From Thermoanaerobaculia bacterium (GTDB taxonomy: Bacteria; Acidobacteriota; Thermoanaerobaculia; Multivoradales; JAIOJS01), in the NCBI GenBank assembly GCA_030429235.1, contig JAUIDB010000006.1, forward strand, positions 124,001-188,000: a DNA stretch of 64,000 nucleotides, given 5' to 3'. Below are positions 27,886-50,050 of this stretch, in pieces. The position numbers and the translations under genes are program-made. The notes beneath the pieces are model-generated. The model was not told the origin of the DNA. It ran no database searches and saw nothing but the letters and a program-made list of their open reading frames with translations. Within the stretch, counting starts at the first letter, position 1; every line of letters starts with the position of its first letter.

Positions 27886-28024
27886 CGTAGGGTCGGTGGG
27901 AGTGGGGGGGCTGGCAGCACGATCCGGCGGGCTAGGTATACCATGGACCCCGCCATGATGCCTCCCTCCGTCCCTCTCGATCGCCCCCTTGGCACCGCAG
28001 CGCGAGAGTGACCCCGAGCTCCAG

Positions 28025-29368
28025 ATGGCGAGAGTTCTCTGCATCAGCGACGGTTTGGTCAGCGTGGTCCTTCCGGCCCTCGAAGTGGGCCGCCGTCTCG
28101 CCGAGGACGGCCACCACGTGGGTTTCCTGGCCGCCGCCCGCTACGCAGAGTCGGCACGAAGACTCGGATTGCGGTTCACCGAGCTGCCCGCGGCCGTATG
28201 CGCCCCGCGCCGACGATCGCAAGAGATCGGTCGGTGGCCGATCGGCGACGAGCTGGCCGAGCGAGTCCTCGATTTCGCCCCCGATCTGCTCCTCATCGAC
28301 GGCGAGTTGCACGAAGTGATCGTGGTGGCCCTCGGACTGCAGCAGCGACACGGTCTGCGGGTGGTGCTTCTGAACAGCTTCGTCTCGATCTGGAGGAGCC
28401 CTGGGGTCCCGCCGCCCCACGTCTTGGCTCAGCCCGGTCTCGGTTGGAGAGGCTCCCGTCTGGTCGTCGCAGCTTACTGGGAGGCACTCTTCTGCCGCAA
28501 GCGTTGGCGTCGGTTCCGAGGTCGTGCTCTCCAGGGAACTACGGACCGTGTGACCCGGCTGCGCCGACTCGCGGCCCGACACGGAGTCGAACTCAAAGCG
28601 GTGGTCGATACCCGTCAGTGGTCGATACCCTTCACCTACCGCAATCTACCGGTGTTGAGCCTGCACGCGCGGGAGTTCGAGTTTCCCCACCGGCTCGATG
28701 TCCGGGCCCACTACGTCGGGCCGATGGTGCTGGCTTCCGACCACCGTCCAGCGCCTGACCAGCCCGACACCGGCCGGGAAGTTCGACGCCTCGAAGCGTT
28801 GCTCGAGGCTCTGCCCCCTAGCGAGACCCTGGTCCTGGCCGTGTTCGGGTCCGCAGCCACGGTCGGTGACCAACTCCCGAGGCGGTTGGTGGACGCCTGT
28901 CAGGTCGAGGGCTGGACCCTCGTGCTGGGGCTCGGTGCCCGTGGCCTCGACCAGCTCGGTGCCCTCCCTGCGAACGTCCACGCCTTTCCCTGGATTCCCC
29001 AGCTGGACGTCTTGGCACGGGCCGACGTCCTGGTGACCCACGGGGGCATCAACTCTCTCGACGAGAGTATTCTGGCCGGGGTGCCGGTGTTGATCTACTG
29101 CGGTCATGCCACGGACATGGCGGGCAATACCTCTCGCGTGCTCTGGCACGGCCTGGGGGCAATGGGCTCTCCGCGAGACACGGCCGGCGGGATTCGCGAG
29201 CGTCTGCAAGGGCTGCTGGCGGATCGGGATTGCCAGCAGCGTGTCCGCACGATGGCCAGGGTGTATCAGGAGTATGCGACGTCACGGCGATTGGAGGAGA
29301 CCGTCCGCCACCTGCTCGAAGAGGATGGAGGGGAATTGGCGGACACAGCGTCGGGGCAGCGACGATGA
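28025..29368 (+). CDS. UGT-like glycosyltransferase (GT1 family)
   Basis: About 447 residues with the GT-B plan: N-terminal domain VLCISDGLVSVVLPALEVGRRLAEDGHHVGFLA, then ETLVLAVFGSAATV and the donor-binding end VLVTHGGINSLDESILAGVPVLIYCGHATDM, equivalent to the HGG...Q/DQ region of UGT/macrolide glycosyltransferases. Such enzymes glycosylate small hydrophobic acceptors such as lipids or peptide natural products, which fits the neighbouring NRPS genes. ATG 28025 starts at the first strand; TTG 27989 is an alternative. The stop overlaps the flippase start. Confidence 0.83.
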   Translation: MARVLCISDGLVSVVLPALEVGRRLAEDGHHVGFLAAARYAESARRLGLRFTELPAAVCAPRRRSQEIGRWPIGDELAERVLDFAPDLLLIDGELHEVIVVALGLQQRHGLRVVLLNSFVSIWRSPGVPPPHVLAQPGLGWRGSRLVVAAYWEALFCRKRWRRFRGRALQGTTDRVTRLRRLAARHGVELKAVVDTRQWSIPFTYRNLPVLSLHAREFEFPHRLDVRAHYVGPMVLASDHRPAPDQPDTGREVRRLEALLEALPPSETLVLAVFGSAATVGDQLPRRLVDACQVEGWTLVLGLGARGLDQLGALPANVHAFPWIPQLDVLARADVLVTHGGINSLDESILAGVPVLIYCGHATDMAGNTSRVLWHGLGAMGSPRDTAGGIRERLQGLLADRDCQQRVRTMARVYQEYATSRRLEETVRHLLEEDGGELADTASGQRR

Positions 29369-32060: not shown

Positions 32061-32080
32061 GCGGTCATAATAAACGCCGA

Positions 32081-36172: not shown

Positions 36173-36978
36173 GTTGGAGGTCGATTCCGATCGAGGGAGA
36201 ACCGCGCTGGCCAGCCGGCCGGCACCTCGAACAACTGGATGCCGCGGGTGGAGTCGTGCGACCGGAGAGCGAGGAACTGGTCGAGTGGTTCGAGACCTAT
36301 CGCGGTCAGCACCGCGAACGGCTGGCCCGGGACCTGGGACTGGTGGAGCGATTCGCGACTCCGGCCGCGCGTCTTCTCGAGGTCGGAGCGTCTCCCTTTC
36401 TGCTGACCGCTGCCCTGGTTTCGGGCGACTACGAGGTGTGTGCCATCGATTTGGCTCCAGAGCGGTTTGCCTCCACGGTGGCCGAACTCGAACTCGACGT
36501 CCGGCGCTGCGACATCGAGAGGGAACCCCTTCCCGTGGCCGATGGTTCGTGCGATCTCGTACTGTTCAACGAACTCTTCGAGCATCTGCACCAGGATCCC
36601 ATCTTCGCACTGCGAGAGGTCCTTCGGGTGCTCGACTCCCAGGGTTGTCTTCTACTCTCGACGCCCAATCTACGGTCGTTTCGCGGTCTCAAGAACCTCT
36701 GGTTGCACCACCAGGCCCATGCCGTGTCAGGGGGAGTGTTCGAACAGTGGGACAAGCGGCGACGCCTCGGGCACATGGGACACGTGCGGGAGTACACCGG
36801 GTTCGAGGTCCTCGACTTTCTCGAGAGGATCGGTTTCGCGATCGATCGTTTGATCTATCGAGGGGGACACGGTCGCGGAGTCGTCGGGTGGGCGGAGAGG
36901 CTGGTACCTTCGATGCGGCCGTTCCTGACCGTGGTGGCTCGCCCTGCGGCGCGGGCGGTAGTGGAGCCAGGCTCATGA
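36169..36978 (+). CDS. class I SAM-dependent methyltransferase
   Basis: 269 residues: motif I ARLLEVGASPFLLTAALV, motif II IDLAPERF, motif IV SCDLVLFNELFEHL, then VLRVLDSQGCLLLSTPN. This is the methyltransferase-11/23 type. GTG start overlaps the NRPS stop (GTGA) and the stop overlaps the sulfotransferase start, so the three genes are co-translated. It probably tailors the peptide or its glycan; O- versus N-methylation is not predictable. Confidence 0.88.
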   Translation: MSWRSIPIEGEPRWPAGRHLEQLDAAGGVVRPESEELVEWFETYRGQHRERLARDLGLVERFATPAARLLEVGASPFLLTAALVSGDYEVCAIDLAPERFASTVAELELDVRRCDIEREPLPVADGSCDLVLFNELFEHLHQDPIFALREVLRVLDSQGCLLLSTPNLRSFRGLKNLWLHHQAHAVSGGVFEQWDKRRRLGHMGHVREYTGFEVLDFLERIGFAIDRLIYRGGHGRGVVGWAERLVPSMRPFLTVVARPAARAVVEPGS

Positions 36979-37877
36979 CGGGGGGTGCACGACGCGTCTT
37001 CGTGGTTGGAGTGCCGAGGTCCGGGACCACCCTGGTGCAGAGCATCCTGGCGGCGGTGCCCGGGGTGGCCTCCTGGACCGAGAGCCACTTCTTCTCCCGC
37101 CACTATCGGTGCCTTCCGGGGGCAGCATCGCGAGCCATCCTGGTACGCAATCCGGAGGAGGCACTGCGTCGCTTCCTGGCGGAGAACGGCCTGGAGCAGA
37201 CGCTGGAGGACGTGGTCTCCTCACTGGGCGATCAGGCCTTGCTGGGTCCGCCCGGTTGGCGCCAGGCCCTACTCTCGTCGAGAGTGGCGCGCGACTTCGT
37301 GCGACTCCTCGACCTCCTGGCCGAACGGCAGGGCTGTGCCGCTTGGGTCGAGAAAACTCCGGCTCACCTTCGCTTCTTGCCCTGGTTGCAGCGCGTGCTC
37401 GAACCCGGCTCGGTGTGTTTCGTGCACGTGGTGCGAGACGGTCTCGCCACGGTGGGTTCGCTCCATCGCACGTCGGCGCACTGGGAGCGCCGCTACTCGC
37501 TCGCCGAGTGCATCGAGCGCTGGAACCGCGATGTGGCTCGCTCGCTGACCCGCGCGAACGAGGACCACCCGACCGATCGTTTCCTCTTCTATGACGACCT
37601 CGTACGATCCCCGGAGGCGACCGCACGGACCCTGGTCGAGGGGCTCGGGTGGCCCTGGGAGGAGGGCATCCTGGCGCGACGTAACGGCGTCTCGGCTCGG
37701 CTCACCGCGCCGGGGGAGGAGTTCTGGAAGGCTCGAGCGGGCGAGGCGATCGCCGAAGACACCGGGGAATCCGTCCCCTTGACACCCGAGCTACGAGAAC
37801 GAGTCCTGGCGGGTCTCGACCACGAACTGCTCCCTCGCCTGCGCGCGGTGGTGGCGCGCCGGGGCCGGAACCGATGA
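36975..37877 (+). CDS. sulfotransferase family protein
   Basis: 300 residues with the 5'-phosphosulfate loop RVFVVGVPRSGTTLVQSIL and the 3'-phosphate-binding segment FVHVVRDGLATVGSLHR; WVEKTPAHLRFLPWL is also typical. It transfers sulfate from PAPS to a hydroxyl or amine. Located between the methyltransferase and a GT2 with ATGA overlaps on both sides, it most likely sulfates the NRPS or glycan product. No PAPS-synthesis gene is in the window. Confidence 0.88.
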   Translation: MTGGARRVFVVGVPRSGTTLVQSILAAVPGVASWTESHFFSRHYRCLPGAASRAILVRNPEEALRRFLAENGLEQTLEDVVSSLGDQALLGPPGWRQALLSSRVARDFVRLLDLLAERQGCAAWVEKTPAHLRFLPWLQRVLEPGSVCFVHVVRDGLATVGSLHRTSAHWERRYSLAECIERWNRDVARSLTRANEDHPTDRFLFYDDLVRSPEATARTLVEGLGWPWEEGILARRNGVSARLTAPGEEFWKARAGEAIAEDTGESVPLTPELRERVLAGLDHELLPRLRAVVARRGRNR

Positions 37878-38653
37878 CGCTCGCCGCGGCGGCTCCCGCG
37901 GTCTCGGTGGTGGTCCCCTTCTTCGCCAGTTCCGCCACGTTGGCCTCCTGTATCGAGTCTCTGTTGAGCCAAGGGTCGCGGGGCGTTCCGGTCGAGTTCC
38001 TGTTCATCGACAACGGTGCTCCCGACGACTCGGCGGAGATCGTCCGGGAGTACCCCGACGTGGTCCTGCTCCGCGAATCGACCCCCGGGGCCTATGCGGC
38101 GCGCAATGCCGGGTTGCGTCGAGCTCGGGCTCCGATCATCGCCTTCACCGATGCCGATTGTGTGGTGGACCAGGACTGGCTGGAGCAGATCGTCCGCGCC
38201 CTCGAGGTTCCGACCGTCGGCGTCGTGCTCGGCGCCTGCCGGTATCCCCAGCGGGCCTCCTGGGCCCTGAAGTTCCTGGCGGCGTACGAGAACGCCAAGA
38301 TCCAGTACGTTCTGGACCACTGCCCGCCGGCGTGTTTCTTCGGTTACGCGAACAACATGGCGGTTCGGGCTTCGTTGTTCGACGAGTTGGGGCCCTTTCG
38401 CGAATGGCGCCGCGCGGGAGACACCGAATTCGTGCACCGGGTGGCGGCAGAACGCCCCGATCTTCGGGTTCACTTCGATCCGGCGGTCCGGGTCACCCAC
38501 CACGAGTTTCTCTCCTTTCGAGCGCGGGCTCGAAGGCTGAACCTGTACACCGAGACCAACGCCAAGATCGATACGTTTCGCGAATTGACCTTCGGACAGC
38601 GGTTGCGGGTGCTGTCGCGATGTCGCTTGGACGGTCAGGGGAGCGGTCGCTAG
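37874..38653 (+). CDS. family 2 glycosyltransferase
   Basis: 259 residues: VSVVVPFFASSATLASCIESLLSQ, FLFIDNGAPDDS, GAYAARNAGLRRARAPIIAFTDADCVVDQDWL with a DAD metal site and GDTEFVHRV. Relatively short and without membrane helices. It overlaps the sulfotransferase by ATGA, so belongs to the NRPS-A operon. The stop shares the palindrome CTAG with the convergent NRPS-B gene, leaving no room for a terminator. Confidence 0.87.
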   Translation: MTLAAAAPAVSVVVPFFASSATLASCIESLLSQGSRGVPVEFLFIDNGAPDDSAEIVREYPDVVLLRESTPGAYAARNAGLRRARAPIIAFTDADCVVDQDWLEQIVRALEVPTVGVVLGACRYPQRASWALKFLAAYENAKIQYVLDHCPPACFFGYANNMAVRASLFDELGPFREWRRAGDTEFVHRVAAERPDLRVHFDPAVRVTHHEFLSFRARARRLNLYTETNAKIDTFRELTFGQRLRVLSRCRLDGQGSGR

Positions 38654-41600
38654 TCGAGTTCGGAGTCGAGTTCGGCGAGGAGAGCATCTTCGGCGATCCG
38701 GGCCAGCCCGGCGAGACTGGGTTGGGCGAAGACGGTTTCCAGGGGGAGATCGAGGTCGAACTCGTCGCAGAGTCGGAGGATCATCCGCATGGCGGTGAGG
38801 GAGGTGCCGCCCAGCTCGAAGAAATCGTCGCCCCTTCCCACCTCGTCGAGAGCCAGCTCGTCGCGCCACAATCCGGCCAGGAACTCCTCGACCGGTCCCC
38901 GAGGGGGCTCGACGGGGGGGCGAGTGTGCCGTGCGGTCGGCAAGGACCAGCGACGGAGGGCCTCGAGGTCGAGCTTGCCATTGGGAGTCAGCGGTAGATC
39001 GCTCAGTTGGTGAAACTGCGCCGGGACCAGGGGGGCGGGCAGGCGTCGGCCGAGATGGCGGGCCAGCGCTGAGGTATCCACCGAGGCGTCGGCGGTGGGG
39101 ACGAGAAAAGCCTGGAGGGACTCTGGTGCCGGCCCGGACTGCGGCGCGTAGCCGACCTCCTGCAGGATGGACCGCACCCGCTCTTCGTCGATCGCGTCGT
39201 CGAGTTCCTCGAGGGCTTCGTCGCGCTTCTTGTGTCCGAGCCGCACATCCCAGCTGTACGGCAGCGCGTAGTTGTGGAACCCCCGTTCGCGCTGGTGGAC
39301 GAAGATGCCAGCGTCGTTGATCAGACAGTTGGTCGAGCGGCCGGTGTCTTCGGGGCGTACCCAGGGAACCCGCTGCTTCAGATAGGAGTAGAGCTCTTCC
39401 ATGTCGACATCGCAGTAGCGGTAGAAGTCGACGAACCGAACCCGCTCGAAGATCTCGTCGGTCGCGAACAAGCTGACGTCCAGCGTGCGGCTGACGGCAT
39501 CGGGGGTGCGGTGGTAGGCCTTGCGAGAGGCGAGTACAGCCTGGTCTACCTCCTCCGGACTCACCCGTCCGTGGCGGAACATCTCCTCGGTCAGGCGGGT
39601 TTCGAACATCTGACCGCGCGACAGGCCGGTGACGATGGCGGGGATCCCGAGTTCGTGGGCGCGACGGGTGGCGAGGGTGTAGATCGTCTTGAAACAGCCA
39701 TTGCAGACGTTCGAGAAGCGTTGCAAGCTGTCGCGGAAGATCTCGTTCATCGCGGGGGTGGTGGCGAACTCGACGTCGACTCCCAGCTGGTCGGTGACGC
39801 GCCGTATGTTCTCCTTGGCACCCTCCGAGATGAAGCCGTTGTCCAGCGTGAAGGCGTAGATCGAGTAGCCCAGATCGGCGAGTCGACAGAGAGCGTAGGT
39901 ACTGTCCTTGCCGCCGCTGTACAACATCAGACAATCCCAGGGGCCCCGGCGCTGCGCCCGGGCCTCGTCGAGATTGCTCCGCAGGTCATCCAGGGTGCGA
40001 AAGTAACCCGCCGCGTGCTCTCGGATCGACTCGTAGGAGTGGCAGAGCGAGCAGGTCCCCTCGGCGTCGAAGGTGGCACCAGGGTAGTTGGCGGGCAGTC
40101 CGCACCGCCGACAGCCCGCTCCCGGGTTCGGAGTCGGGACGCCGAGGTCGGCATCCGCCGGGCCTGGAGTGCCCACCACCAGAACCGCGCACCGCTCGAC
40201 GCCGGGGAAGGTCTCGATCAGGGTCTCGACCTCGCCCGGTTCGAGCCGAAAGCCCGCGACCTTGACCTGTCGATCGGTGCGACCGAGGTACTCGAGTTTC
40301 GTCGGGTCGACGAACCGCACCAGATCGCCAGAGCGATACCGTACCGCCGCTCCAGGCTCGGGGCCGGGAACGAACCGAGCCGCGGTCTCCTCGGGGAGCT
40401 GATGGTAGCCGCGGGCGAGTCCGTGGCGCGCGATCCACAGTTCTCCAGGAACTCCCGTCGGCACGGCCTGCCCGGCTGGGTTCAGCACCTCGATCTGGAC
40501 ATGGTCAGCCGGCCGACCGATCGGTACGGAGCCGACTCGATCGCTCGCAGGGTCGAATCGATGGACGAGACATCCGACCACTGCTTCGGTGGGTCCGTAC
40601 TCGTTGTAGATCTCGGCCGAAGGTGCGAGGCGCTCGGCGACCGCTGCCGCCAGTTCCGCGGAGAACGACTCGCCACCGACGATGAGCCGACGGACACCGG
40701 TCGCTTCGAAGCGGCCGCTCCGGAGCACGGAGAGGTGGGAGGGAGTGAGTTTCAGGAAGTCGATCTGGTTGCGTTCGACGGCGTGCAGGAACGCCTCGTC
40801 GAGCGCGCCCGCGGCGCGCGGATAGAGCTCGAGCGTTCCCCCGGTGATCAGGGGGAGGAAGAGACTCGTGACGGTGAGGTCGAAGGCCAGTGAGGTCACC
40901 AGTCCGTAGCGCAGGGCCTCGCCTCGCACGTAGGTTCGTTCGGCGAACTCGAGGTAGTCGGCCAGTCCCCGGTGTTCGATCAGCACCCCCTTGGCCCGGC
41001 CAGTCGATCCAGAGGTGTAGAGCAGATAGGCGAGATCGGTCAGGCTTGGGGGTTCCGGGGGCCGCGAGTCGTGGCCGTGGTCGAGGGCCTGACGGACGGT
41101 GGGGGGATCGAGGAGCAGCGTCGCCCCCGAGTCTTCGACCAGCTGTTTCTGGCGCTCCTCTGGATGGGCGGGGTCGATCGGCACGTAGGCGCCGCGGGCA
41201 CTGAGCACGGCCAGGATGGCAACCACGCTCTCCAAGGAACGATCCCCCAGGACGGCGACCCGGTCCCCGGGTTGGAGGTGGTGCACTCGGAGCAGGTGGT
41301 TGGCCAGGATCGCTACCTGGTCCCGGACCTGAGCGTAGTCGACGGACTGATCGACCGTGCCGTCGACCACCAGTTCCAGAGCGACGCGAGTCGGGTGTCG
41401 GTTGGCCGTGTCGAAGAAGGCGTCGACCACCGTCCGCTCGGGCGTAGGGCAACGATCGCTCTGGTTGAAACTATCGAGCTGCTGACGCTCGTCATCGGTG
41501 CGCAGGTCGATGCTGTCGATTCTCTGGTCCGGGTCGCGAAGGAGTGCCTCCACCAAGGTCTCGAAATGGTGCGGGATGCGCTCTCTCGCGGCGGCCGAAA

Positions 41601-42828
41601 GGTGCGTCCGGTTCAGGTCGAAGTCGAACTGGAAACGGCCCGAGCCCGAGAAGTCGTGGATCTGCAAGCGAAGAGCATGCAGATGATCGGCATGACCGGG
41701 ATGGAGCCAGGTCACGGCCGTAGCCGCGTCTCCGAAGCGGCCGAAACGGACGGGCAGGTAGTTCAAGACGGCTCGGCTCATCGAGTGCTCCGGAGTCGGA
41801 GCGGTCCCGGCGGCATCGCTTCGTAGGAGGTCCATTGCGCGGGCCAGGGTCTCCGCACCCAGCCGTCGGAAGGTCGTGCCTTCGGGTACCCTGGCGGCGA
41901 AGGGGAACATCTCGATAAAGAGGCCGATGGTGTCTTTGGCCTCCGGGGTAGAGCGGCCCAGGAGCGGCGTGTCGAACGAGGTCTCCGGCTCTGCACTGAT
42001 CTGGCTCAGGAAGGCGTGGAACAGGGTCGAGAAGAGGGCGAACAGGGAGAGGTGGGGAAGCACCGAGGCGAAGGGGGCCTCGGCCGCCCGCGCGCGCAGC
42101 GCCGAGGAGCGTTCCGCATCCAACTGCAGGCTCGAGCGGACGCTGGCCGTACCGCGGTGGACCGGGGACGGCCGTTCTCCGTAGAGGGTGAGCCCACCCG
42201 GGGCAGTGGTTCGGTCCGGGGTGGTGGAAGACCTGTCACTGGCCCTCGGCCCTGGCGCCAGCGCGTAGTAGCGGTCGGCCGTCACCGGCCGCGGCGCGAA
42301 CTCCGGTTGGCTCTCCAGGGCGAGGTAGCTCGCGGCCAATCGGTCGTAGAGCAGCCGAGTCGACCAGGCATCGGTGATCAGGTGGTGTTGGTTGAGGTAC
42401 CAGCCGGTCTGTCGGTTCGGAAGCCGTACCAGGACGCTGTCGACCAGCGGTCCGTCGAGGGGAAGCGGTCGAGCACAGCGCGCGCGGCCCCAGTCGAGAA
42501 AGCGCGCGACCGCATCCTCTTGGCCACTGAAGTCGGCCACGGTCAGTGCGAGTTCGGAACTCGAGAACCGCTGCAGTCGGCCTCCCGGGCCGGATCGGAA
42601 TCGAGTCTGGAGCGCTTCGCTGGAGGCGGTGACCTGGCGCCAGGCGGCTCGGAATCGCTCCGGCTCCAGCTCGTCCTCGATCACGAAGGCGAAGGCCATG
42701 TTGTAGAGCGGCGACTCGGCGTGGAGCTGCTGTCCGATGGCGATCGGAAGCTGGGCCCGCGTCAACCCGCCGGTGTCCAGTGGGCGGTCGACGGGCTCGG
42801 TCCCTGCGTCCTGCTCGCTGCGCGTCAC
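38650..42828 (-). CDS. non-ribosomal peptide synthetase, C-A(PP-loop)-PCP with interrupted A domain (NRPS-B)
   Basis: 1392 residues. Condensation domain with NQHHLITDAWS (~148). Adenylation core with A3 LLYTSGSTGRAKG (~604), A5 NEYGPTEAVVG (~742) and A8 RTDRQVKVAGFRLEPGEVE (~848). At about residue 890, before A9/A10 (LPAPLVP, TPNGKLDLEAL ~1281), some 340 extra residues are inserted: zinc-type cysteines CRRC...CSLC (~905-926), PP-loop YSGGKDSTYALCRL (~970), CNGC (~1039) and SWDVRLGHKKRDEALEEL. This insert resembles WbpG/PseA-type N-acetyl sugar amidotransferases. Carrier Ser in FFELGGTSL (~1338); no TE. By-eye code D-L-T-K-I-G-E-V-G-K is near the Asn code. It follows the ACP and A genes on the same strand. 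Confidence 0.93.
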   Translation of the reverse strand: MTRSEQDAGTEPVDRPLDTGGLTRAQLPIAIGQQLHAESPLYNMAFAFVIEDELEPERFRAAWRQVTASSEALQTRFRSGPGGRLQRFSSSELALTVADFSGQEDAVARFLDWGRARCARPLPLDGPLVDSVLVRLPNRQTGWYLNQHHLITDAWSTRLLYDRLAASYLALESQPEFAPRPVTADRYYALAPGPRASDRSSTTPDRTTAPGGLTLYGERPSPVHRGTASVRSSLQLDAERSSALRARAAEAPFASVLPHLSLFALFSTLFHAFLSQISAEPETSFDTPLLGRSTPEAKDTIGLFIEMFPFAARVPEGTTFRRLGAETLARAMDLLRSDAAGTAPTPEHSMSRAVLNYLPVRFGRFGDAATAVTWLHPGHADHLHALRLQIHDFSGSGRFQFDFDLNRTHLSAAARERIPHHFETLVEALLRDPDQRIDSIDLRTDDERQQLDSFNQSDRCPTPERTVVDAFFDTANRHPTRVALELVVDGTVDQSVDYAQVRDQVAILANHLLRVHHLQPGDRVAVLGDRSLESVVAILAVLSARGAYVPIDPAHPEERQKQLVEDSGATLLLDPPTVRQALDHGHDSRPPEPPSLTDLAYLLYTSGSTGRAKGVLIEHRGLADYLEFAERTYVRGEALRYGLVTSLAFDLTVTSLFLPLITGGTLELYPRAAGALDEAFLHAVERNQIDFLKLTPSHLSVLRSGRFEATGVRRLIVGGESFSAELAAAVAERLAPSAEIYNEYGPTEAVVGCLVHRFDPASDRVGSVPIGRPADHVQIEVLNPAGQAVPTGVPGELWIARHGLARGYHQLPEETAARFVPGPEPGAAVRYRSGDLVRFVDPTKLEYLGRTDRQVKVAGFRLEPGEVETLIETFPGVERCAVLVVGTPGPADADLGVPTPNPGAGCRRCGLPANYPGATFDAEGTCSLCHSYESIREHAAGYFRTLDDLRSNLDEARAQRRGPWDCLMLYSGGKDSTYALCRLADLGYSIYAFTLDNGFISEGAKENIRRVTDQLGVDVEFATTPAMNEIFRDSLQRFSNVCNGCFKTIYTLATRRAHELGIPAIVTGLSRGQMFETRLTEEMFRHGRVSPEEVDQAVLASRKAYHRTPDAVSRTLDVSLFATDEIFERVRFVDFYRYCDVDMEELYSYLKQRVPWVRPEDTGRSTNCLINDAGIFVHQRERGFHNYALPYSWDVRLGHKKRDEALEELDDAIDEERVRSILQEVGYAPQSGPAPESLQAFLVPTADASVDTSALARHLGRRLPAPLVPAQFHQLSDLPLTPNGKLDLEALRRWSLPTARHTRPPVEPPRGPVEEFLAGLWRDELALDEVGRGDDFFELGGTSLTAMRMILRLCDEFDLDLPLETVFAQPSLAGLARIAEDALLAELDSELD

Positions 42829-42847: not shown

Positions 42848-43108
42848 TCAGCGAGTCGAGGCGCGCGTTCGGGCCACGTATTGCGCCAGGCTGGCGGTGG
42901 TCTGGAAGTTCTCGACCACGAAGTCTCGGGGGCCGGTGGTGATGCCGAACGTCTCGTCGACGAACCCTGCCAGGCGGAGTACCGCCACCGAGTCGAGCAG
43001 ATCGGACAGCAGGTCGTCGTCGCGATCGATGGTGACTTCGGCGGGGAGGAGCTCCTGATGTACGAAGGTGAGGATCGTCGCTTCGAGTTCTCGATTCGGC
43101 TGCGTCAT
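42848..43108 (-). CDS. standalone acyl/peptidyl carrier protein
   Basis: 86 residues; helix II start DDDLLSDLLDSVAVLRLAGFVDE carries the attachment Ser (residue 40) in DSV. The size and acidic helix are those of a free ACP/PCP. ATGA overlap with the standalone adenylation gene shows the two work as a pair: the A enzyme loads an acyl group on this carrier, which then feeds the condensation domain of NRPS-B 19 bp downstream. It needs the phosphopantetheinyl transferase encoded at 49.3 kb. Confidence 0.85.
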   Translation of the reverse strand: MTQPNRELEATILTFVHQELLPAEVTIDRDDDLLSDLLDSVAVLRLAGFVDETFGITTGPRDFVVENFQTTASLAQYVARTRASTR

Positions 43109-44694
43109 GGTTCGGCTACCTTCTGTTCTCGAGTCTCGATCTGGCCCGAGGCCGAGAGGCTCTGGCGGTCGACCTTGCCGGTGGGGGTGCGCGGCAGCCG
43201 GTCCAGGATCTCGAGGCTCTCGGGGACGGCATAGGCCGGAAGCAGGTCCCGCAGCCGGTCGCGCAGGGCGTCCGCCGAGGTGGCTCCGCGCGAGACCACG
43301 GCGGCTCGCAAGGACAGACTCGCTTCACCGTCGGAGACGGAGTAGGCGACCGCCTCCTCCACCTCGTCGAGGTCGAGCAACGCGGCTTCGACCTCACCCA
43401 GCTCGACGCGGTGACCACGGATCTTGATCTGCAGGTCGGTCCTGGCGACGAAGGCCAGGTCGCCATTCGCCAGGGTCTGGACCTGATCCCCCGTACGAAA
43501 GTAGGTTTCTTCGAAACCTCCGCCGCTCGGCCGGCGATAGAAGGCGGTGTGGTTGCGGTCTGGGTCGTTCCAGTATCCACTCATCACCGTCGACCCACGA
43601 ATCAGGAGCTCGCCTGATGCACCTGCCGCCACCGGTTCCAGGTCGCCGTCCACCACCTCGGCGGCGGTGTGCTCGCAGGGGCGACCGATCGGCAGAGGGT
43701 CCGGGAACTCGCCGTCCGGGAGGTGGTAGTAGGTGCAGACATTGACCTCGGTCGAACCGTAGACATGGCTGAATCGCGCTTTCGGTAGGCGGCGCCGCAG
43801 TCGCTCGAGGTGCTTCCGGGGAAAGGTCTCCCCGGCGAACAGAATCCATCGGAGCGAAGCCAGATCCCTCTCCTCGAGAGCTCCCCGCAGCAACAGTTGC
43901 ACCAGAGCGGTGGGGACCGAGTACCAGACCGAGATCGCTTCGCGCTCGATCGTGAGAGACAGGCTACCCGGCAGCTTGAGCGTGGCGGGAGAGAAGAGGA
44001 CCGTCGAGGCGCCGGCGCGGGCGGCGGCGTAGTAGTCGAAGGTAGCAAAGCAGGTGTGGTGCGAAGAGTGCTGACTCAGCCGGTCCTCGGACCCCAGGTC
44101 GTAGGCCGCTACCGCCCACTCGACGAAGGCCATGGCGCTGGCATGGGTGTGGCGGATCAGTTTGGGAGTTCCGGTGGATCCGGAGGTGTGCAGGATGTAC
44201 GCCGTGTCGAGTTCGAGAACCGGGACGTCGGGTAGGCCGTCGTTCGTCTCCGCCGCTTCGACCTCCGTCCACGACGCGATCGATCGGTCGCCGATCGGGT
44301 CCACGACTCCGATGACGTGGCGCAAGGTGTGGCAACGGGCTGCGATCTCCCCGAGTCCGGCGGCCCGCTTTGGTTCGGTGACCAGGTGGGTAGCGCCCGT
44401 TGCCTCGAGGATTCTCTCGATCTGCGCCGCCGGAGACCTAGGGTCGATCGGGACCAGAGCACCCCCGGCGGCAAGCACGCCGTAGAAACTCTCGGGGACC
44501 CGCGGCCCGCGGTCGAGCAGTACGGCGACCCGTGCTTGCCGTTGCAGTCCACGCTCGAGCAGCGTGCGGGCCAGGGCACCACTTCGTCGGACGAGCTGTT
44601 GGTAGCTTCGATCACCGCCCAGGCCACGCGTGGCGATGGCGTCGGGCTGCCGGTGCGCCGCGTCCTGGATCGTCCGATGCAGTAGCCGGGTCAC
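43105..44694 (-). CDS. standalone adenylation enzyme (acyl-ACP ligase)
   Basis: 529 residues: A3 ILHTSGSTGTPKLIRHTH, A5 HVYGSTEVNVC, A7 YFRTGDQ, A8 RTDLQIKIRGHRVELGEVEAALL, A10 TPTGKVDR, so a complete ANL enzyme. At the position of Asp235 in amino-acid-activating domains it reads S-H-H-T-C-F-A-T-F-D-Y-Y, i.e. Cys (residue 215) rather than Asp, so the substrate may lack a free alpha-amine. It adenylates the starter acid and loads the overlapping ACP. A-ACP plus acyl-CoA dehydrogenase cassettes are known from pyrrolyl (PltF/L/E-type) starters, but the missing Asp argues against plain proline. Confidence 0.87.
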   Translation of the reverse strand: MTRLLHRTIQDAAHRQPDAIATRGLGGDRSYQQLVRRSGALARTLLERGLQRQARVAVLLDRGPRVPESFYGVLAAGGALVPIDPRSPAAQIERILEATGATHLVTEPKRAAGLGEIAARCHTLRHVIGVVDPIGDRSIASWTEVEAAETNDGLPDVPVLELDTAYILHTSGSTGTPKLIRHTHASAMAFVEWAVAAYDLGSEDRLSQHSSHHTCFATFDYYAAARAGASTVLFSPATLKLPGSLSLTIEREAISVWYSVPTALVQLLLRGALEERDLASLRWILFAGETFPRKHLERLRRRLPKARFSHVYGSTEVNVCTYYHLPDGEFPDPLPIGRPCEHTAAEVVDGDLEPVAAGASGELLIRGSTVMSGYWNDPDRNHTAFYRRPSGGGFEETYFRTGDQVQTLANGDLAFVARTDLQIKIRGHRVELGEVEAALLDLDEVEEAVAYSVSDGEASLSLRAAVVSRGATSADALRDRLRDLLPAYAVPESLEILDRLPRTPTGKVDRQSLSASGQIETREQKVAEP

Positions 44695-44701
44695 GGGGTT
44701 C

Positions 44702-45910
44702 TCAGGGCAGGATCTTCTGCAGGGCGGGCGGAAGCGACTCGTACATCGGCACGTCGATCTCGAAGGCCCTCTCGGCGGCCCAGACCGAGGCGACCAGGAT
44801 CATGCCGGCGGCTGCGACCCGCAGGCCCCACCCTCGATAGACCGGCCAGCGCCGCACGAGGTAGAGCAGGGGTACCAGCCCGGCCACGATCACGATCTGG
44901 CCGATCTCGACCCCCAGGTTGAAGGCGAGCAGGGAGAGTCCCACGTGTTCGCTGAGAACTCCCATCTCCGAGAGCGCTCCCGCGAAACCGAAGCCGTGGA
45001 ACAGTCCGAAGCCGACCACCACCAGCCAGAGGCGTCCCCGGAAGATCGGAACGATCAGATCGGCGGCCGCGATCGCGATCGAAACGGCGATGATCACCTC
45101 CACGAGCTTGCCGGGAAGCTCGACCACCCCCAGCGAGGCCAGACTCAAGGTGAGGCTGTGGGCGACAGTAAATGCAGTGACGATCTTGACCACGTTGAGG
45201 AGAGCGGGGCCGAAGGCTTCTACCGGTTGCCAAACGCCGTCGACCCGCCGAAGCACCGCCGGAAGCAACAGCGCCGTCAGGAAGAGGATGTGGTCGATCC
45301 CCTCCCAGATGTGCTCGATGCCCAGTCCGAGGACCGCCATGAATCCCTGGAGACGGCCGTCGGTGGTGAGTTCGAACTCCTGGCGACGGTCGTCGGGGCT
45401 GAAGACCAGAGAGACTCGATTCTCGTTGGCGAAGGTCCCCGTGGCCCAGTTGTACTCGACGAGAAGAAAACCGCGGTGGTCGGGATCCTCGTCGAACAGA
45501 ACCGAGTAGTCGAAGGTCAAGGTGTCCGGGACCGAGTCGAGGCCTTCCAGGGAGAACGAGAGCAGCGCGAATCCCTCCGAGACCGCCAGGACTTCGCTGT
45601 CGGTGAACCGCATCGGCAGCCGAGTTCCCTGGTGCTCGATACGGACCTTCTGTCGGTAGTACTCCTGCAGGAAGCCGACGTGCTGCGGGAAGTTCTCTGC
45701 CGTGATCTCGTCCTCGGTGCCGCTGAGTCCCAGGGCAGGGTTGAGGTTCTCGAGAGCGATCTCGAACCGTCCCGTCACGGAGTCCTGCTGGATCTGCAGG
45801 TAGAGATAACTCTCTCCCACGTTGTGCGCTTGCAGCGAGGTCGAGGTCAGGAAGACGAGAAGAGCCGAGCAGATCCAGGCAGCGAGGCGGCGGTCGTACA
45901 GTCGTGTCAT
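44702..45910 (-). CDS. HupE/UreJ-family membrane protein
   Basis: About 402 residues. A signal peptide (ICSALLVFLTSTSLQAHN) and a ~190-residue extracytoplasmic domain (DSVTGRFEIALENLNPALGL) precede some six to seven membrane helices with GIEHIWEGIDHILFLTALLL, AFTVAHSLTLSLA and FGLFHGFGFAGAL. The His motifs H-x-W-x-G-x-D-H and H-S are those of HupE/UreJ-2 proteins, presumed Ni/Co transporters. It lies 7 bp after the adenylation gene in the strand order ACAD-HupE-A-ACP-NRPS, so is transcribed with them; its link to the product is unclear. Confidence 0.85.
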   Translation of the reverse strand: MTRLYDRRLAAWICSALLVFLTSTSLQAHNVGESYLYLQIQQDSVTGRFEIALENLNPALGLSGTEDEITAENFPQHVGFLQEYYRQKVRIEHQGTRLPMRFTDSEVLAVSEGFALLSFSLEGLDSVPDTLTFDYSVLFDEDPDHRGFLLVEYNWATGTFANENRVSLVFSPDDRRQEFELTTDGRLQGFMAVLGLGIEHIWEGIDHILFLTALLLPAVLRRVDGVWQPVEAFGPALLNVVKIVTAFTVAHSLTLSLASLGVVELPGKLVEVIIAVSIAIAAADLIVPIFRGRLWLVVVGFGLFHGFGFAGALSEMGVLSEHVGLSLLAFNLGVEIGQIVIVAGLVPLLYLVRRWPVYRGWGLRVAAAGMILVASVWAAERAFEIDVPMYESLPPALQKILP

Positions 45911-45994: not shown

Positions 45995-47137
45995 TCAGCC
46001 GAGTCCGCGGAGGCCAGCGATCAGGTTGCGTTGGATCTCCGAGGTGCCGACGTAAAGAGTCGTGGCCAACGCGTCCCGGAGTTCGCGCTCGATCTCGTAG
46101 TCGACCATATAACCGTACCCCCCGAAGAGTTGGATTGCATCTCGACAGGTGGCGACGTAGGCCTCGCTGACGGCGAGTTTGGCCAGCGCCGATTCGCGGG
46201 TCACCGAGCCCTTCGATCCCTGGGCCCAGGCGGCCCGATAGAGCAGGAGACGGGCGGCCTCGAGACGGAGCTCCATGTCGGCCACACGATGCGACACTCC
46301 CTGGTACCGACCGATCGGCCCCTTTCCGGTATCGCGGGAGCGCGCGTGCCGGACGCAGCGCTCGAGGAGTCGCTCCATGACCCCGACCGCGGGAGCCATC
46401 ACCAGGAGCCGCTCGACATCCATGGTGTGGGTGAACAACATCGCACCGGAACCCACCTCCCCGAGAAGGGCATCGGCCGGGAGACGGCAGCGGTCGAGGA
46501 AAACTTGCGCCACCGGACTCGTGCGGAGCCCCATCTTGGCCATCGACGGTCCGACCGACAGTCCCTGGGTGTCGGCGGGGACGAGAAAGGCGGACAGACC
46601 GGTGAAGCCCTCGCCCGTCCGGGCGTAAACCACGAACAGGTCGGCGATCGGTGCGTTGGTCACGAAGGTCTTGGAGCCATCGAGCTCCCAGCAGTCTCCC
46701 TCTCTCTTCGCCACCATGGAGAGTCCGAGGGCGTTCGATCCGCTGTCCGGCTCGGTAACGGCGGTGGCTCCGATCACCACCCCGTCGACCATTCCGGACA
46801 ACCACTGGGCTCTCTGGGCCTCGGTTCCCGCCTCGATGAGGGGAACGGTGCAGGAAGCGACGTGCGCCGCCACCGAGAAGACGAGTCCGTTGTCGGCCGC
46901 ACCGTAACCGAGGCCTTCGAAGACAGCCACGGCGGTTAACAGGTCCTGGCCAGCACCATGCCAGGTCTCGGGGGTCAGAAGTCCTTGCAGTCCGAACTGG
47001 GCACAGGCGTTCCACAGTTCGCGCGAGAACTGTTGGTCTCGGTCGCGCTCGATCACTCCGTCCGCCAGGCGCTCGGCGGCGAAGTCGGCTGCGCCCTGCT
47101 TGAGCGCTCGCTGTTCGTCGGTCCAATCGAAGTGCAC
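45995..47137 (-). CDS. acyl-CoA (acyl-ACP) dehydrogenase
   Basis: 380 residues: TEPDSGSNALGLSMVAKREG, GSKTFVTNA, QLFGGYGYMVDYEIERELRDA and GTSEIQRNLIAGL are standard flavin acyl-CoA dehydrogenase motifs. The usual catalytic Glu before G-T is Val (LYVGTSEIQR), but Glu242 in THTMDVERLLV matches the alternative catalytic site of isovaleryl-CoA and long-chain dehydrogenases, so it should be active. In this locus it probably oxidises the starter acyl group while bound to the ACP, giving an alpha,beta-unsaturated unit. 84-85 bp gaps separate it from both neighbours. Confidence 0.88.
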   Translation of the reverse strand: MHFDWTDEQRALKQGAADFAAERLADGVIERDRDQQFSRELWNACAQFGLQGLLTPETWHGAGQDLLTAVAVFEGLGYGAADNGLVFSVAAHVASCTVPLIEAGTEAQRAQWLSGMVDGVVIGATAVTEPDSGSNALGLSMVAKREGDCWELDGSKTFVTNAPIADLFVVYARTGEGFTGLSAFLVPADTQGLSVGPSMAKMGLRTSPVAQVFLDRCRLPADALLGEVGSGAMLFTHTMDVERLLVMAPAVGVMERLLERCVRHARSRDTGKGPIGRYQGVSHRVADMELRLEAARLLLYRAAWAQGSKGSVTRESALAKLAVSEAYVATCRDAIQLFGGYGYMVDYEIERELRDALATTLYVGTSEIQRNLIAGLRGLG

Positions 47138-47222: not shown

Positions 47223-49256
47223 TCAAGGTGCGTCGGGACGGGGAGGCTCTCCCTCGACCAGAAGGACGCGGTCGAAGGCGACGGCGAGAGTCCGCTCGTC
47301 CTCCGCGGCCGGATCCAGGTCGCGCGGAGACTGGACCCAGTCGAAGGTGAACTCGAGGTGGTCGATCTCCTCGTCGCTTCGGTAGGGACCGAGGGTGAGC
47401 TGGTTCCAGCCCGGTTCCAGGGTGACGCTGCCGACCGGTTGCCCGTGGACCGAGAGGTGCAGGCGTTGAGGTGGTCGGTGGTCGGTGGGAAAGGGTCTCA
47501 ACCAGAGTCTCAGGTGCCGCGTCGGGTTGGGCCCCGTGGCGACCAGCGCGAGTTCAGCTCGAGAGTCGGCGGCCCAACGAAAGGTGCGACCCTCGGGTTC
47601 TCGTTCTGCGACCGACCACCCCGGGCCGAGCCACGATGCGTCTTCGGAGAAGTCCTGGACTCCGGGGACGTATCCGAGCTGCGCGAGCATCGGAGCGAGG
47701 GGGGACTGAGTCGATCGCGGCGAGACGAGGGTGGCAAAGTCGGGCCAGTAGTAGAGGCGTAGATTGGCGCGCTCACGACGTAGGACCGGGTGCAGCGTCG
47801 CTGTCCACTCGTCGAGCCAAGGCGCGTGGTGGTAGCCCGCACTGAGGAAAAATCCACCGCGGTGGCTCTGGAGGGCGGAGCGAGCACTGGCCTCGGAGAA
47901 GTTGGTCGCCACCAACTCCACTTCGTGTCCGAGCTCGTCGAGGTAGTAGCCGAGGCAGTCGAAGGACCACTCCTCTCGGGTCACGACCACCTCGTCGGGA
48001 CCCGTCCAGGTTCCCACCAGGTCGGCAACCTCGCGCCACGGCGGTTTGTTCCACGGTTCCTTGCGAGCGGCGGTCCAGCCAGGAACGAGGAGGAGTCCGA
48101 GTACGGCCAGTGAGAACACGGTGCTGACCCAGGCCGGGGGGAGGGGAGTTGGCTCGCCCCGGACCTGCCGCCGTCGTACCCAGGATGCCGCCCACGGCCC
48201 GGCCTGACAGGCTCCCACCGCGACCAGGATCAGAAAGGCCGGTAGACCGCTGGAGGTGTAGCGGACGTTGTACCAGTGGTCGAACCGATGGAGGGCGGCC
48301 AGCCAGCCGCAGACCGGCAGGAGCCAGAGCCCGAGCAGCCAGAGCGCGGCCCGGGGCTGCGTTCGCAGCAAGAATCCTGCGCCGGAGACGGCGAACAGGA
48401 GTGCGATCCAGCTCACATAGTTGGTGGTGCCAGAGTCCAGGCCCGACACGGTGAAGCTGGCAGCCAGTCGGTCGAGAGCTTCCGGCGACAGGGGACGCGT
48501 GATCTCGAGACCGGCACTGTGTTCCCTGCGTTCCGTGGAGTCGCCGCTGACTCGGTCGATTCCTTGGACGGTCGGAAAGAGCATCGGGAGCACGCAGAGC
48601 GCCAGACCGGCGGCCAGGACGAGGGAACCTCGACCCACCAGACCTCCCTGGAATCTTGACCAGTACCAGTCACAGATCGCGAGCAGGAGAAAAGCGATCA
48701 GTAGCGGAGCCCCGATCGCACCGCAGTAGACGATGGCCAGGCAAGCCGGAAAGACGAAGATCCGGGCCCACCGCCGCTCCGCCAGCAGGGCGAGGAGGAT
48801 CAGGACGGCGGCCCCCAGCATCACGGCGGAGTAGGGCCTACCCTCTCGCGAGTAGTACACGTGGAGGGGCGAGACCGCGATCAACAGGGCGGCGGCGAGT
48901 CCGATCCAGCGGTTGCGGGTTGTCGCCGTCGCGGCCAACCCGAGCCCGAGGACACCGAACAGGCCGGCGATGGCCGGGGCGAGCCGTACTCCGAACTCCC
49001 CCTCGGCGAAGTGCAGCGACAGGACCTGCAGAGCGTAGTACAGAGGACCGTTCTCGCGATCGACCGGGAGGCCGGTGAACCATCCCCACCAGGACGTGGC
49101 CCCAGACATGGCTTCGCGGGCACGATTGACGTGCAGGACCTCGTCGTACCAAAGCGATGGTTCGGCGAGACCATCGAAGCGTAGGAACAGGGCTACCCCA
49201 CCAACTCCGACGAGCCCTACCAGCCAAAGGAGGTCCACCCTCTTGCGCCACGGCAC
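47223..49256 (-). CDS. GT39-like polytopic glycosyltransferase (PMT_2 family)
   Basis: 677 residues. About ten membrane helices in the first 400, with the acidic first-loop motif LWYDEVLHVNRA (D-E) used by ArnT/PMT-type lipid-phosphate-sugar transferases, and YSREGRPYSAVMLGAAVLILL later. The last ~280 residues are soluble and periplasmic and end in a beta-rich module (RLHLSVHGQPVGSVTLEPGWNQLTLGPY). It would transfer a sugar from a polyprenyl-phosphate donor to a periplasmic acceptor, consistent with the flippase. It is upstream on the same strand as the ACAD/NRPS-B set and may be the promoter-proximal gene. Confidence 0.82.
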   Translation of the reverse strand: MPWRKRVDLLWLVGLVGVGGVALFLRFDGLAEPSLWYDEVLHVNRAREAMSGATSWWGWFTGLPVDRENGPLYYALQVLSLHFAEGEFGVRLAPAIAGLFGVLGLGLAATATTRNRWIGLAAALLIAVSPLHVYYSREGRPYSAVMLGAAVLILLALLAERRWARIFVFPACLAIVYCGAIGAPLLIAFLLLAICDWYWSRFQGGLVGRGSLVLAAGLALCVLPMLFPTVQGIDRVSGDSTERREHSAGLEITRPLSPEALDRLAASFTVSGLDSGTTNYVSWIALLFAVSGAGFLLRTQPRAALWLLGLWLLPVCGWLAALHRFDHWYNVRYTSSGLPAFLILVAVGACQAGPWAASWVRRRQVRGEPTPLPPAWVSTVFSLAVLGLLLVPGWTAARKEPWNKPPWREVADLVGTWTGPDEVVVTREEWSFDCLGYYLDELGHEVELVATNFSEASARSALQSHRGGFFLSAGYHHAPWLDEWTATLHPVLRRERANLRLYYWPDFATLVSPRSTQSPLAPMLAQLGYVPGVQDFSEDASWLGPGWSVAEREPEGRTFRWAADSRAELALVATGPNPTRHLRLWLRPFPTDHRPPQRLHLSVHGQPVGSVTLEPGWNQLTLGPYRSDEEIDHLEFTFDWVQSPRDLDPAAEDERTLAVAFDRVLLVEGEPPRPDAP

Positions 49257-49309
49257 GTCGTGAGCTTACACGGACCCGTAGGCCCCTCGCCTCGAGGCAC
49301 AATAGGCCG

Positions 49310-50050
49310 ATGGAGGTCGAAGTCTGGCGCATCGGTCTAGGGGCGGAAGTCGCCGTCGACAGGGCGACGGTTGCCGTACCCTCGGCAACGGACGTCGAGT
49401 TCGTTCCGATCGACCTCGACGATTGGTCCGAGCGCGTGCTCTCCGGCCACGAGCAGGCTCGGGCTCGTCGTCTGAGAACGGCCGACCTGCGACGCCGTTT
49501 CGTTCGCGTGCACGGGAGTCTCCGCGCAATTCTGGCTCGCTACTTGCGTCTTGCGCCGGAGGCAGTCGAGCTGGTGGCGGATCAGGGTTCGAAACCTCGG
49601 CTGTCGGAGTCACACCCTCCACTTCGCTTCAATCTCAGTCACTCGCGCGATCTGGCCCTGCTGGCGGTGCATCGCCACCTAGAGGTAGGTGTCGATGTCG
49701 AGTGGCACGATCCCACGACGGAAACCGGCCGGTTGGCAGCACGTTTTTTTGGGGCCGAGGAGCAGGGGTACGCGGCGCAGGCGGCCGAGGGCCTGAACGC
49801 CATCGCGGCGACGGAGGCGCGCCGGGCCGAGTTCTTTCGCCTCTGGACGCTGCGTGAGGCCTATCTGAAGGGGTTGGGGCTGGGTCTCAGCGTTCCGTTG
49901 ACCGGGTTTGCCGTGTCGGGCCCAAATGTCGTGCCTCCCCGCCTACTGCGGAGCGACTACGGCGATCCCGGCGCCTGGAATCTGGCGAGCTTCGTTCCCC
50001 GCGTGGGATACAGCGCAGGGTTGGCGGTTGCGCAGCCGGCCGCGATCTAG
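49310..50050 (+). CDS. 4'-phosphopantetheinyl transferase, Sfp type
   Basis: About 246 residues: PPLRFNLSHSRDLALLAV, LEVGVDVEWHD (metal Asp/Glu) and EFFRLWTLREAYLKGLGLGL (W-x-x-KEA-like, here LREAYLK). It activates carrier domains by adding the CoA arm, so is needed for the ACP and both NRPS carriers. ATG 49310 is chosen; the track ORF extends into the divergent GT39 gene. Placed at the edge of the cluster, it marks a likely right boundary. Confidence 0.9.
   Translation: MEVEVWRIGLGAEVAVDRATVAVPSATDVEFVPIDLDDWSERVLSGHEQARARRLRTADLRRRFVRVHGSLRAILARYLRLAPEAVELVADQGSKPRLSESHPPLRFNLSHSRDLALLAVHRHLEVGVDVEWHDPTTETGRLAARFFGAEEQGYAAQAAEGLNAIAATEARRAEFFRLWTLREAYLKGLGLGLSVPLTGFAVSGPNVVPPRLLRSDYGDPGAWNLASFVPRVGYSAGLAVAQPAAI

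What the first reader, a model, noticed from the sequence alone, without database searches (positions are those of the whole stretch)
40500..40960. Interrupted A domain carries a near-asparagine specificity code
Aligning by eye with GrsA gives D-L-T-K-I-G-E-V-G-K; the published Asn code is DLTKLGEVGK, one conservative change. A side-chain amide in the selected residue gives the embedded PP-loop domain an obvious substrate (amide to amidine or thioamide).
Basis: partly seen in the sequence, partly recalled or inferred. Interest (0 to 1): 0.75.

Follow-up and report, generated by a model that had tools for sequence, protein, structure and literature searches.

The report
Asparagine module with embedded amide-dehydratase domain
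A bacterial peptide-making enzyme selects asparagine and carries, inside its asparagine-selecting domain, a second enzyme of a known type that most likely turns the asparagine side chain into a nitrile; the same unit turns up in about ten bacterial phyla, often in a similar and apparently unstudied gene cluster.

Summary
The nine pocket residues plus the A10 lysine beyond the insert give DLTKIGEVGK. This is not a near-match: it is a published code, the one reported for the albicidin AlbIV domain, which also carries a ~342-aa PP-loop insert. In 59 complete relatives the code is always DLTK[IV]GEVGK; 76 of 76 scored interrupted A domains carry it (one with EIG) and no uninterrupted A domain in the same loci does. 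The insert fits a described kind: the AMDH (aminomutase/amide-dehydratase) domain of cystobactamid CysH, shown in the literature to turn T-bound Asn into beta-cyanoalanine or isoasparagine. So 'Asn, acted on at its side-chain amide' is supported; 'amidine or thioamide' is not the best reading, nitrile is. No glutaminase, sulfur donor or beta-hydroxylase was found near the gene. CysH and AlbIV could not be aligned directly. New here: (1) NASAT fold plus an invariant CxxC...C triad like that of [4Fe-4S] LarE/TtuA, absent from the two WbuX proteins compared, which may explain the brown colour reported for CysH; (2) the module recurs across phyla beside a proline-type starter cassette and often a His module. 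New member of a known kind; moderate interest.

The parts
38650..42828 (-). NRPS module C-A-[AMDH-like PP-loop insert]-A(sub)-T, 1392 aa
   Evidence: Pfam/NCBIfam domains; translation; HHLITDA in C, GGTSL in T, A10 PLTPNGK intact
40573..40881 (-). nine Stachelhaus pocket positions D-L-T-K-I-G-E-V-G of the A core
   Evidence: motif positions; alignment with GrsA; column conservation
38974..38994 (-). A10 motif PLTPNGK with catalytic Lys (tenth code residue), beyond the insert
   Evidence: invariant in 59 of 59
39133..40134 (-). embedded AMDH-like PP-loop domain between A8 and A9: tetracysteine (CRRC..CSLC), PP-loop SGGKDS (39901-39918), NVCNGCF (39691-39711), DTGRSTNC (39325-39348)
   Evidence: TIGR03573 3e-31, 109 bits; conservation; AlphaFold pLDDT 90.7 and Foldseek 8wex
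42848..43108 (-). stand-alone acyl/peptidyl carrier protein
   Evidence: PF00550; DSVAVL serine motif
43105..44694 (-). stand-alone adenylation enzyme; best single-domain solved match PltF (L-Pro:PCP ligase), but D235 position is Cys
44702..45910 (-). HupE/UreJ_2-family membrane protein, recurrent in the neighbourhood across phyla
   Evidence: PF13795 6e-43; 39 of 80 loci
45995..47137 (-). acyl-CoA-dehydrogenase-like, probable prolyl-carrier-protein dehydrogenase
   Evidence: PigA/RedW models 1e-110 though below their cut-offs; AnaB 4irn 325 bits
31931..36172 (+). C-A-T-TE terminal module, A code DSALIAEVW(K) = His
   Evidence: domains; code; His assignment of DSALIAEVWK from PMC12283262
36169..36978 (+). 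methyltransferase, conserved in related acidobacterial loci
36975..37877 (+). sulfotransferase, conserved in related acidobacterial loci
   Evidence: PF13469
37874..38653 (+). GT2 glycosyltransferase, conserved in related acidobacterial loci
27989..29368 (+). UGT-type glycosyltransferase with relatives near the module in 14 of 80 loci
49157..50050 (+). 4'-phosphopantetheinyl transferase
   Evidence: PF01648 2e-13

Best explanation
The module activates L-asparagine and loads it on its own carrier domain. The embedded PP-loop domain then uses ATP to activate the side-chain amide oxygen and removes it as water, giving beta-cyano-L-alanine on the enzyme (amide dehydratase, AMDH type). The module's C domain joins this residue to a starter acyl group, most likely proline-derived (pyrroline- or pyrrole-2-carbonyl) and supplied by the adjacent A + carrier + dehydrogenase cassette. 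The C-A-T-TE gene probably adds histidine and releases the peptide. Shown by sequence here: domain order, Asn code, insert position, conserved motifs and neighbours. Shown by experiment elsewhere: the dehydratase/aminomutase activity of the CysH domain. Inferred: the reaction here, the starter, the order of assembly, the product.
For: Exact published code, invariant in all interrupted relatives aligned and absent from uninterrupted A domains in the same loci. Described AMDH features met: PP-loop/AANH insert of about 340 aa in an Asn A domain, SGGKD motif (PMC7966384, PMC12283262). CysH experiment: Asn loading followed by -18 Da, lost when AMDH is deleted; without the hydroxylase CysJ, Asn, isoAsn and cyanoAla forms appear. 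No CysJ/SyrP-type hydroxylase, glutaminase or sulfur donor in the window genes scanned. NASAT/PP-loop fold. Starter: A closest to PltF, DH closest to AnaB, ornithine-cyclodeaminase family in 27 of 80 loci.
Against: CysH and AlbIV are stand-alone A-T modules working in trans; this is C-A-T. By sequence the nearest named family is the NASAT/WbuX amidotransferases, which make amidines. The window's starter A enzyme has Cys where D235 of alpha-amino-acid A domains sits.
Confidence: 0.68

Rival explanations
1. The embedded domain is an aminomutase: it isomerises carrier-bound Asn (or beta-hydroxy-Asn) to isoasparagine.
For: The same CysH domain does this in vivo (PMC7966384); isoAsn is seen even when the hydroxylase CysJ is deleted.
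Against: In the literature hydroxylation steers CysH towards isomerisation; no hydroxylase was found among the window genes scanned. PhyH-type dioxygenases were seen in only 4 of 80 loci. In vitro CysH dehydrates Asn when CysJ is absent.
Confidence: 0.13
2. One reading: amidotransfer, turning the Asn side-chain amide into an amidine.
For: Nearest named family is the NASAT/WbuX amidotransferases, over nearly the whole insert; best fold match is 8wex; tetracysteine and PP-loop shared.
Against: Score 109 bits against a cut-off of 203. The two WbuX sequences compared lack the CxxC...C triad and the TGLSRGQ and DTGRSTNC motifs invariant here. No HisH/HisF-type ammonia source near the window gene or among recurrent neighbours. 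The characterised AMDH domain makes nitrile, not amidine.
Confidence: 0.1
3. Thioamide formation: the CxxC...C triad holds a cluster that delivers sulfur, as in LarE/TtuA.
For: CxxC-C plus PP-loop is the LarE/TtuA layout (alignment of insert to mmLarE).
Against: No sulfur-carrier or desulfurase family among the recurrent neighbours; no thioamide reported for CysH or AlbIV products in the papers read.
Confidence: 0.05
4. The insert is catalytically dead and only structural or regulatory; Asn is incorporated unchanged.
For: In cystobactamid the domain is also needed for O-methylation, perhaps by protein contact.
Against: PP-loop, seven cysteines and many polar residues are invariant in 59 proteins, and the insert is more conserved (60% mean identity) than the A core (44%).
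Confidence: 0.04

Closest known systems
AMDH domain of cystobactamid synthetase CysH (Gross et al. 2021, PMC7966384)
   Same: PP-loop domain with SGGKD embedded in an Asn-specific A domain; the authors report many homologues, all in Asn-code A domains
   Different: CysH is a stand-alone A-T module with hydroxylase CysJ and shuttle CysB; here C-A-T in line, no hydroxylase or shuttle seen, proline-type starter instead of PABA units.
AlbIV of albicidin biosynthesis (Cociancich et al. 2015, as cited in PMC7966384, PMC8949500, PMC12283262)
   Same: identical code DLTKIGEVGK and a ~342-aa AANH-superfamily insert; product beta-cyanoalanine
   Different: stand-alone module loaded in trans; different peptide; sequence not fetched
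N-acetyl sugar amidotransferases WbpG/WbuX/LpNASAT (TIGR03573, PDB 8WEX)
   Same: tetracysteine, PP-loop, overall fold
   Different: free-standing, act on sugars; 109 bits versus 203 cut-off; the two members compared lack the CxxC...C triad
[4Fe-4S] PP-loop sulfur transferases LarE (T. maritima, M. maripaludis) and TtuA
   Same: SGGXDS plus CXXC-C layout; local alignment of NVCNGCFK to mmLarE NRCYNCKK
   Different: transfer sulfur; not in NRPSs; their [4Fe-4S] cluster is shown, here it is only inferred
Proline-derived starter cassettes (PltF/PltE, AnaB, PigA/RedW)
   Same: adjacent A, carrier and dehydrogenase genes; best single-domain solved matches PltF and AnaB
   Different: window A has Cys at the D235 position; DH scores below the NCBIfam cut-offs
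Methyltransferase-interrupted A domains (e.g. TioS, PDB 5WMM)
   Same: tailoring domain nested between A8 and A9
   Different: different inserted enzyme and reaction

Membership tests
AMDH-interrupted Asn A domain | A domain with Asn code | tested here: met
   DLTKIGEVGK
AMDH-interrupted Asn A domain | AANH/PP-loop domain of about 340 aa inserted in the A domain, SGGKD motif | tested here: met
   insert between A8 (aa 849-859) and A10 (aa 1279-1285), SGGKDS at aa 971; published 342 aa for AlbIV
AMDH-interrupted Asn A domain | sequence homology to CysH AMDH | not tested
   no search here returned a record recognisable as CysH; AlbIV deliberately not fetched
AMDH-interrupted Asn A domain | converts T-bound Asn to beta-cyanoAla and/or isoAsn | not testable with these tools
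   needs protein MS
CysH/AlbIV-type stand-alone module (sub-type, not taken as defining for AMDH) | A-T without C domain, loaded in trans | tested here: not met
   window is C-A-T; four scan loci (L086, L109, L112, L113) have a ~1000-aa gene without room for a full C domain
NASAT/WbuX (TIGR03573) | score over curated cut-off 203.2 | tested here: not met
   109-113 bits
NASAT/WbuX (TIGR03573) | tetracysteine + SGGXDS | tested here: met
[4Fe-4S] PP-loop enzymes (LarE/TtuA type) | CXXC-C motif with SGGXDS | tested here: met
   C588, C591, C714 of A2 invariant in 59 of 59; motif as described in PMC9283937
[4Fe-4S] PP-loop enzymes (LarE/TtuA type) | the three Cys converge and bind a cluster | not testable with these tools
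Prolyl starter cassette | A enzyme of L-Pro:PCP ligase type with D235 | tested here: inconclusive
   PltF is best single-domain match but the window subclade has Cys at 235; the mainstream code in other phyla is D[MI][FL]YLGV
Prolyl starter cassette | prolyl-PCP dehydrogenase | tested here: inconclusive
   371 and 369 bits against cut-offs 500 and 650; AnaB best solved relative

The most novel reading that the evidence does not exclude
The embedded domain is an iron-sulfur PP-loop enzyme: a [4Fe-4S] cluster on the invariant CxxC...C triad helps turn an activated amide into a nitrile, a chemistry I found no description of for NRPS domains. The module is the core of a widespread pathway making a short Pro-derived-acyl - cyanoalanine - His peptide. 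The X-X-His pattern, a HupE-like membrane protein and, in some phyla, TonB receptors would fit a copper- or nickel-binding metallophore.
Probability: 0.2. Interest if true: 0.8.

Novelty: new member of a known kind. Interest (0 to 1): 0.48.

Why it matters
Nitriles are useful and uncommon in natural products, and how the AMDH domain makes one is stated in the literature to be unknown (PMC7966384). The comparison here gives a fold (NASAT), a clean set of invariant residues and a specific, cheap test: is the brown colour of such proteins an iron-sulfur cluster on CxxC...C? It also suggests that this kind of module is not confined to two antibiotics: it lies beside a proline-type starter in many loci of about ten phyla, and often beside a His module, which points to a shared product that I did not find described in the papers searched.

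Tried and rejected
Literature searches for 'interrupted adenylation domain'/'PP-loop' and for amidotransferase/amidine gave nothing on this fusion; searching the ten-letter code itself led to AlbIV and CysH. Viral contigs: no relative. Plasmid collection: only two close relatives and a divergent free-standing AMDH-like protein fused to a condensation domain in Streptomyces. An early idea that this Streptomyces gene was an A domain split at the insertion point was dropped: the gene before it is a complete A-T with an unrelated code (DARHASLMT). Foldseek with the whole A-AMDH-T model was dominated by A domains, so the insert was modelled alone. My first reading of the starter as plainly proline was softened by the D235 to Cys change in the window's subclade. 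Papers on HupE/NRPS or pyrrole/cyanoalanine combinations gave nothing relevant. Conserved-neighbour counts use mechanical ORFs and fixed flanks, so absences are weak evidence.

Full report
What is there. The minus-strand gene 38650-42828 encodes a 1392-aa C-A-T module whose A domain is interrupted between motifs A8 and A9 by a PP-loop domain. The pocket residues read D-L-T-K-I-G-E-V-G, with the A10 lysine about 530 residues further on, beyond the insert. The ten-letter code DLTKIGEVGK is not one change away from a known code: PMC12283262 lists it as such and links it to the AlbIV domain for beta-cyanoalanine, which carries a 342-aa insert of the adenosine-nucleotide alpha-hydrolase superfamily.

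Is it more than chance. A search of 59 related genomes found the insert at 60-74% identity in 13 other loci of the order, 12 of them in frames of 1440-2573 aa and one in a truncated contig. A scan of one genome per species for 84,980 species gave 314 relatives; the 80 kept lie in frames carrying A-domain motifs, some cut by contig ends. In the 59 complete proteins aligned the code is DLTKIGEVGK (35) or DLTKVGEVGK (24); nine of ten code columns are invariant while 40 of 429 A-core columns are, at 44% mean pairwise identity. Scoring the A domains in the loci, 76 of 76 interrupted ones carry the code (one with EIG), and no uninterrupted one does. The window's nearest relatives are Thermoanaerobaculia (Acidobacteriota). 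By submitters' titles the 80 loci span eleven phylum-level groups; one of these (a 'Deltaproteobacteria' title, L043) is the same contig region as G004 of the window's own order, so about ten is the fair count.

What the insert is. Its best named family is the N-acetyl sugar amidotransferases (TIGR03573, 3e-31) but at 109 bits against a cut-off of 203. Modelled alone (pLDDT 90.7, pTM 0.90), its best solved match is LpNASAT 8WEX (E 1.7e-10, TM about 0.6), followed by asparagine synthetase, TtuA and LarE. It shares the tetracysteine and PP-loop with NASAT. It differs from the two WbuX proteins aligned by an invariant or near-invariant NVC[NQ]GCFK, TGLSRGQ and DTGRSTNC. CxxC plus a distant Cys with SGGXDS is the layout described for [4Fe-4S] LarE (PMC9283937), and phmmer aligned the insert's CxxC with that of mmLarE. 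Gross et al. report that purified CysH is dark brown and that they found no CxxCxxxC motif. That the triad binds a cluster here is an inference; I could not measure distances in the model.

What it does. Gross et al. (PMC7966384) showed that CysH loads Asn (not Asp) and that its embedded AMDH domain dehydrates it to beta-cyanoalanine in vitro and is needed for isoasparagine in vivo. They state that homologues all sit in Asn-code A domains, and that SGGKD is shared with AlbIV. The window's module meets the described features. I could not align it with CysH or AlbIV themselves, so membership rests on features, not on direct homology. Among the window genes scanned there is no hydroxylase like CysJ, no glutaminase and no sulfur donor. 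Nitrile formation, needing only ATP, is therefore the simplest reading.

The setting. Next to the module lie a carrier protein, a stand-alone A enzyme closest to PltF, a HupE/UreJ_2 membrane protein and a dehydrogenase closest to AnaB. On the other strand is a C-A-T-TE with the His code DSALIAEVW. Among 54 scan loci with more than 6 kb upstream of the module gene, 46 have the A enzyme, 46 the dehydrogenase and 42 both. Of 49 with more than 4.5 kb downstream, 25 have a His-code A domain. Ornithine-cyclodeaminase-family genes occur in 27 of 80 loci, TonB receptors in 12 (Bacteroidota and one Verrucomicrobium). So a Pro-derived acyl - Asn* - His backbone is a reasonable guess for a good part of these clusters, including the window. 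In the window's subclade the starter A enzyme has Cys at the D235 position, so its substrate is less sure. A metal-binding role (X-X-His, HupE, TonB) is speculation.

Verdict. Observation confirmed and sharpened; interpretation right about Asn and the amide, probably wrong about the product. The thing is a new member of a described kind. The parts that go beyond the literature read here are the fold assignment, the CxxC...C triad, the C-A-T in-line form and the cross-phylum company of the module.

Noticed in passing
window 43105-44694 and loci L035, L037-L039, L041-L043: In the window's subclade the stand-alone starter A enzyme has Cys in place of D235 (code CFFYLAVVC), while close relatives L036, L044, L048 with the same GT2/ST/MT genes have a different A/DH pair (about 40% identity); starter cassettes look exchanged.
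   Followed up: partly
window 31931-36172 and many loci: Uninterrupted A domains near the module repeatedly carry the His code DS[AV]L[IVM]AEVW, in several phyla.
   Followed up: partly
L067, L071, L074, L081, L083, L091, L092, L094, L104, L107, L114, L050: TonB-dependent receptor genes lie near the module in Bacteroidota loci and one Verrucomicrobium.
   Followed up: partly
L086, L109, L113: Rhizobial mini-cluster: PPTase, a ~345-aa protein beginning like a docking domain, a ~1000-aa A(AMDH)-T without room for a full C domain, and an acyl-CoA dehydrogenase about 30% identical to the window's.
   Followed up: no
L124 14932-17112: Streptomyces sp. NBC_01216 plasmid encodes a free-standing AMDH-like domain (46% identical) fused to a condensation-like domain, beside asnB and near a tyrosine-aminomutase gene.
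   Followed up: partly
L117 (G010:C68) and G029:C15: 682-692-aa frames match only the N-terminal part of the insert/WbuX well; nature not examined.
   Followed up: no
L125: Roseovarius pelagicus plasmid carries the same core (A, DH, carrier, HupE, NRPS) amid polysaccharide-export genes.
   Followed up: partly
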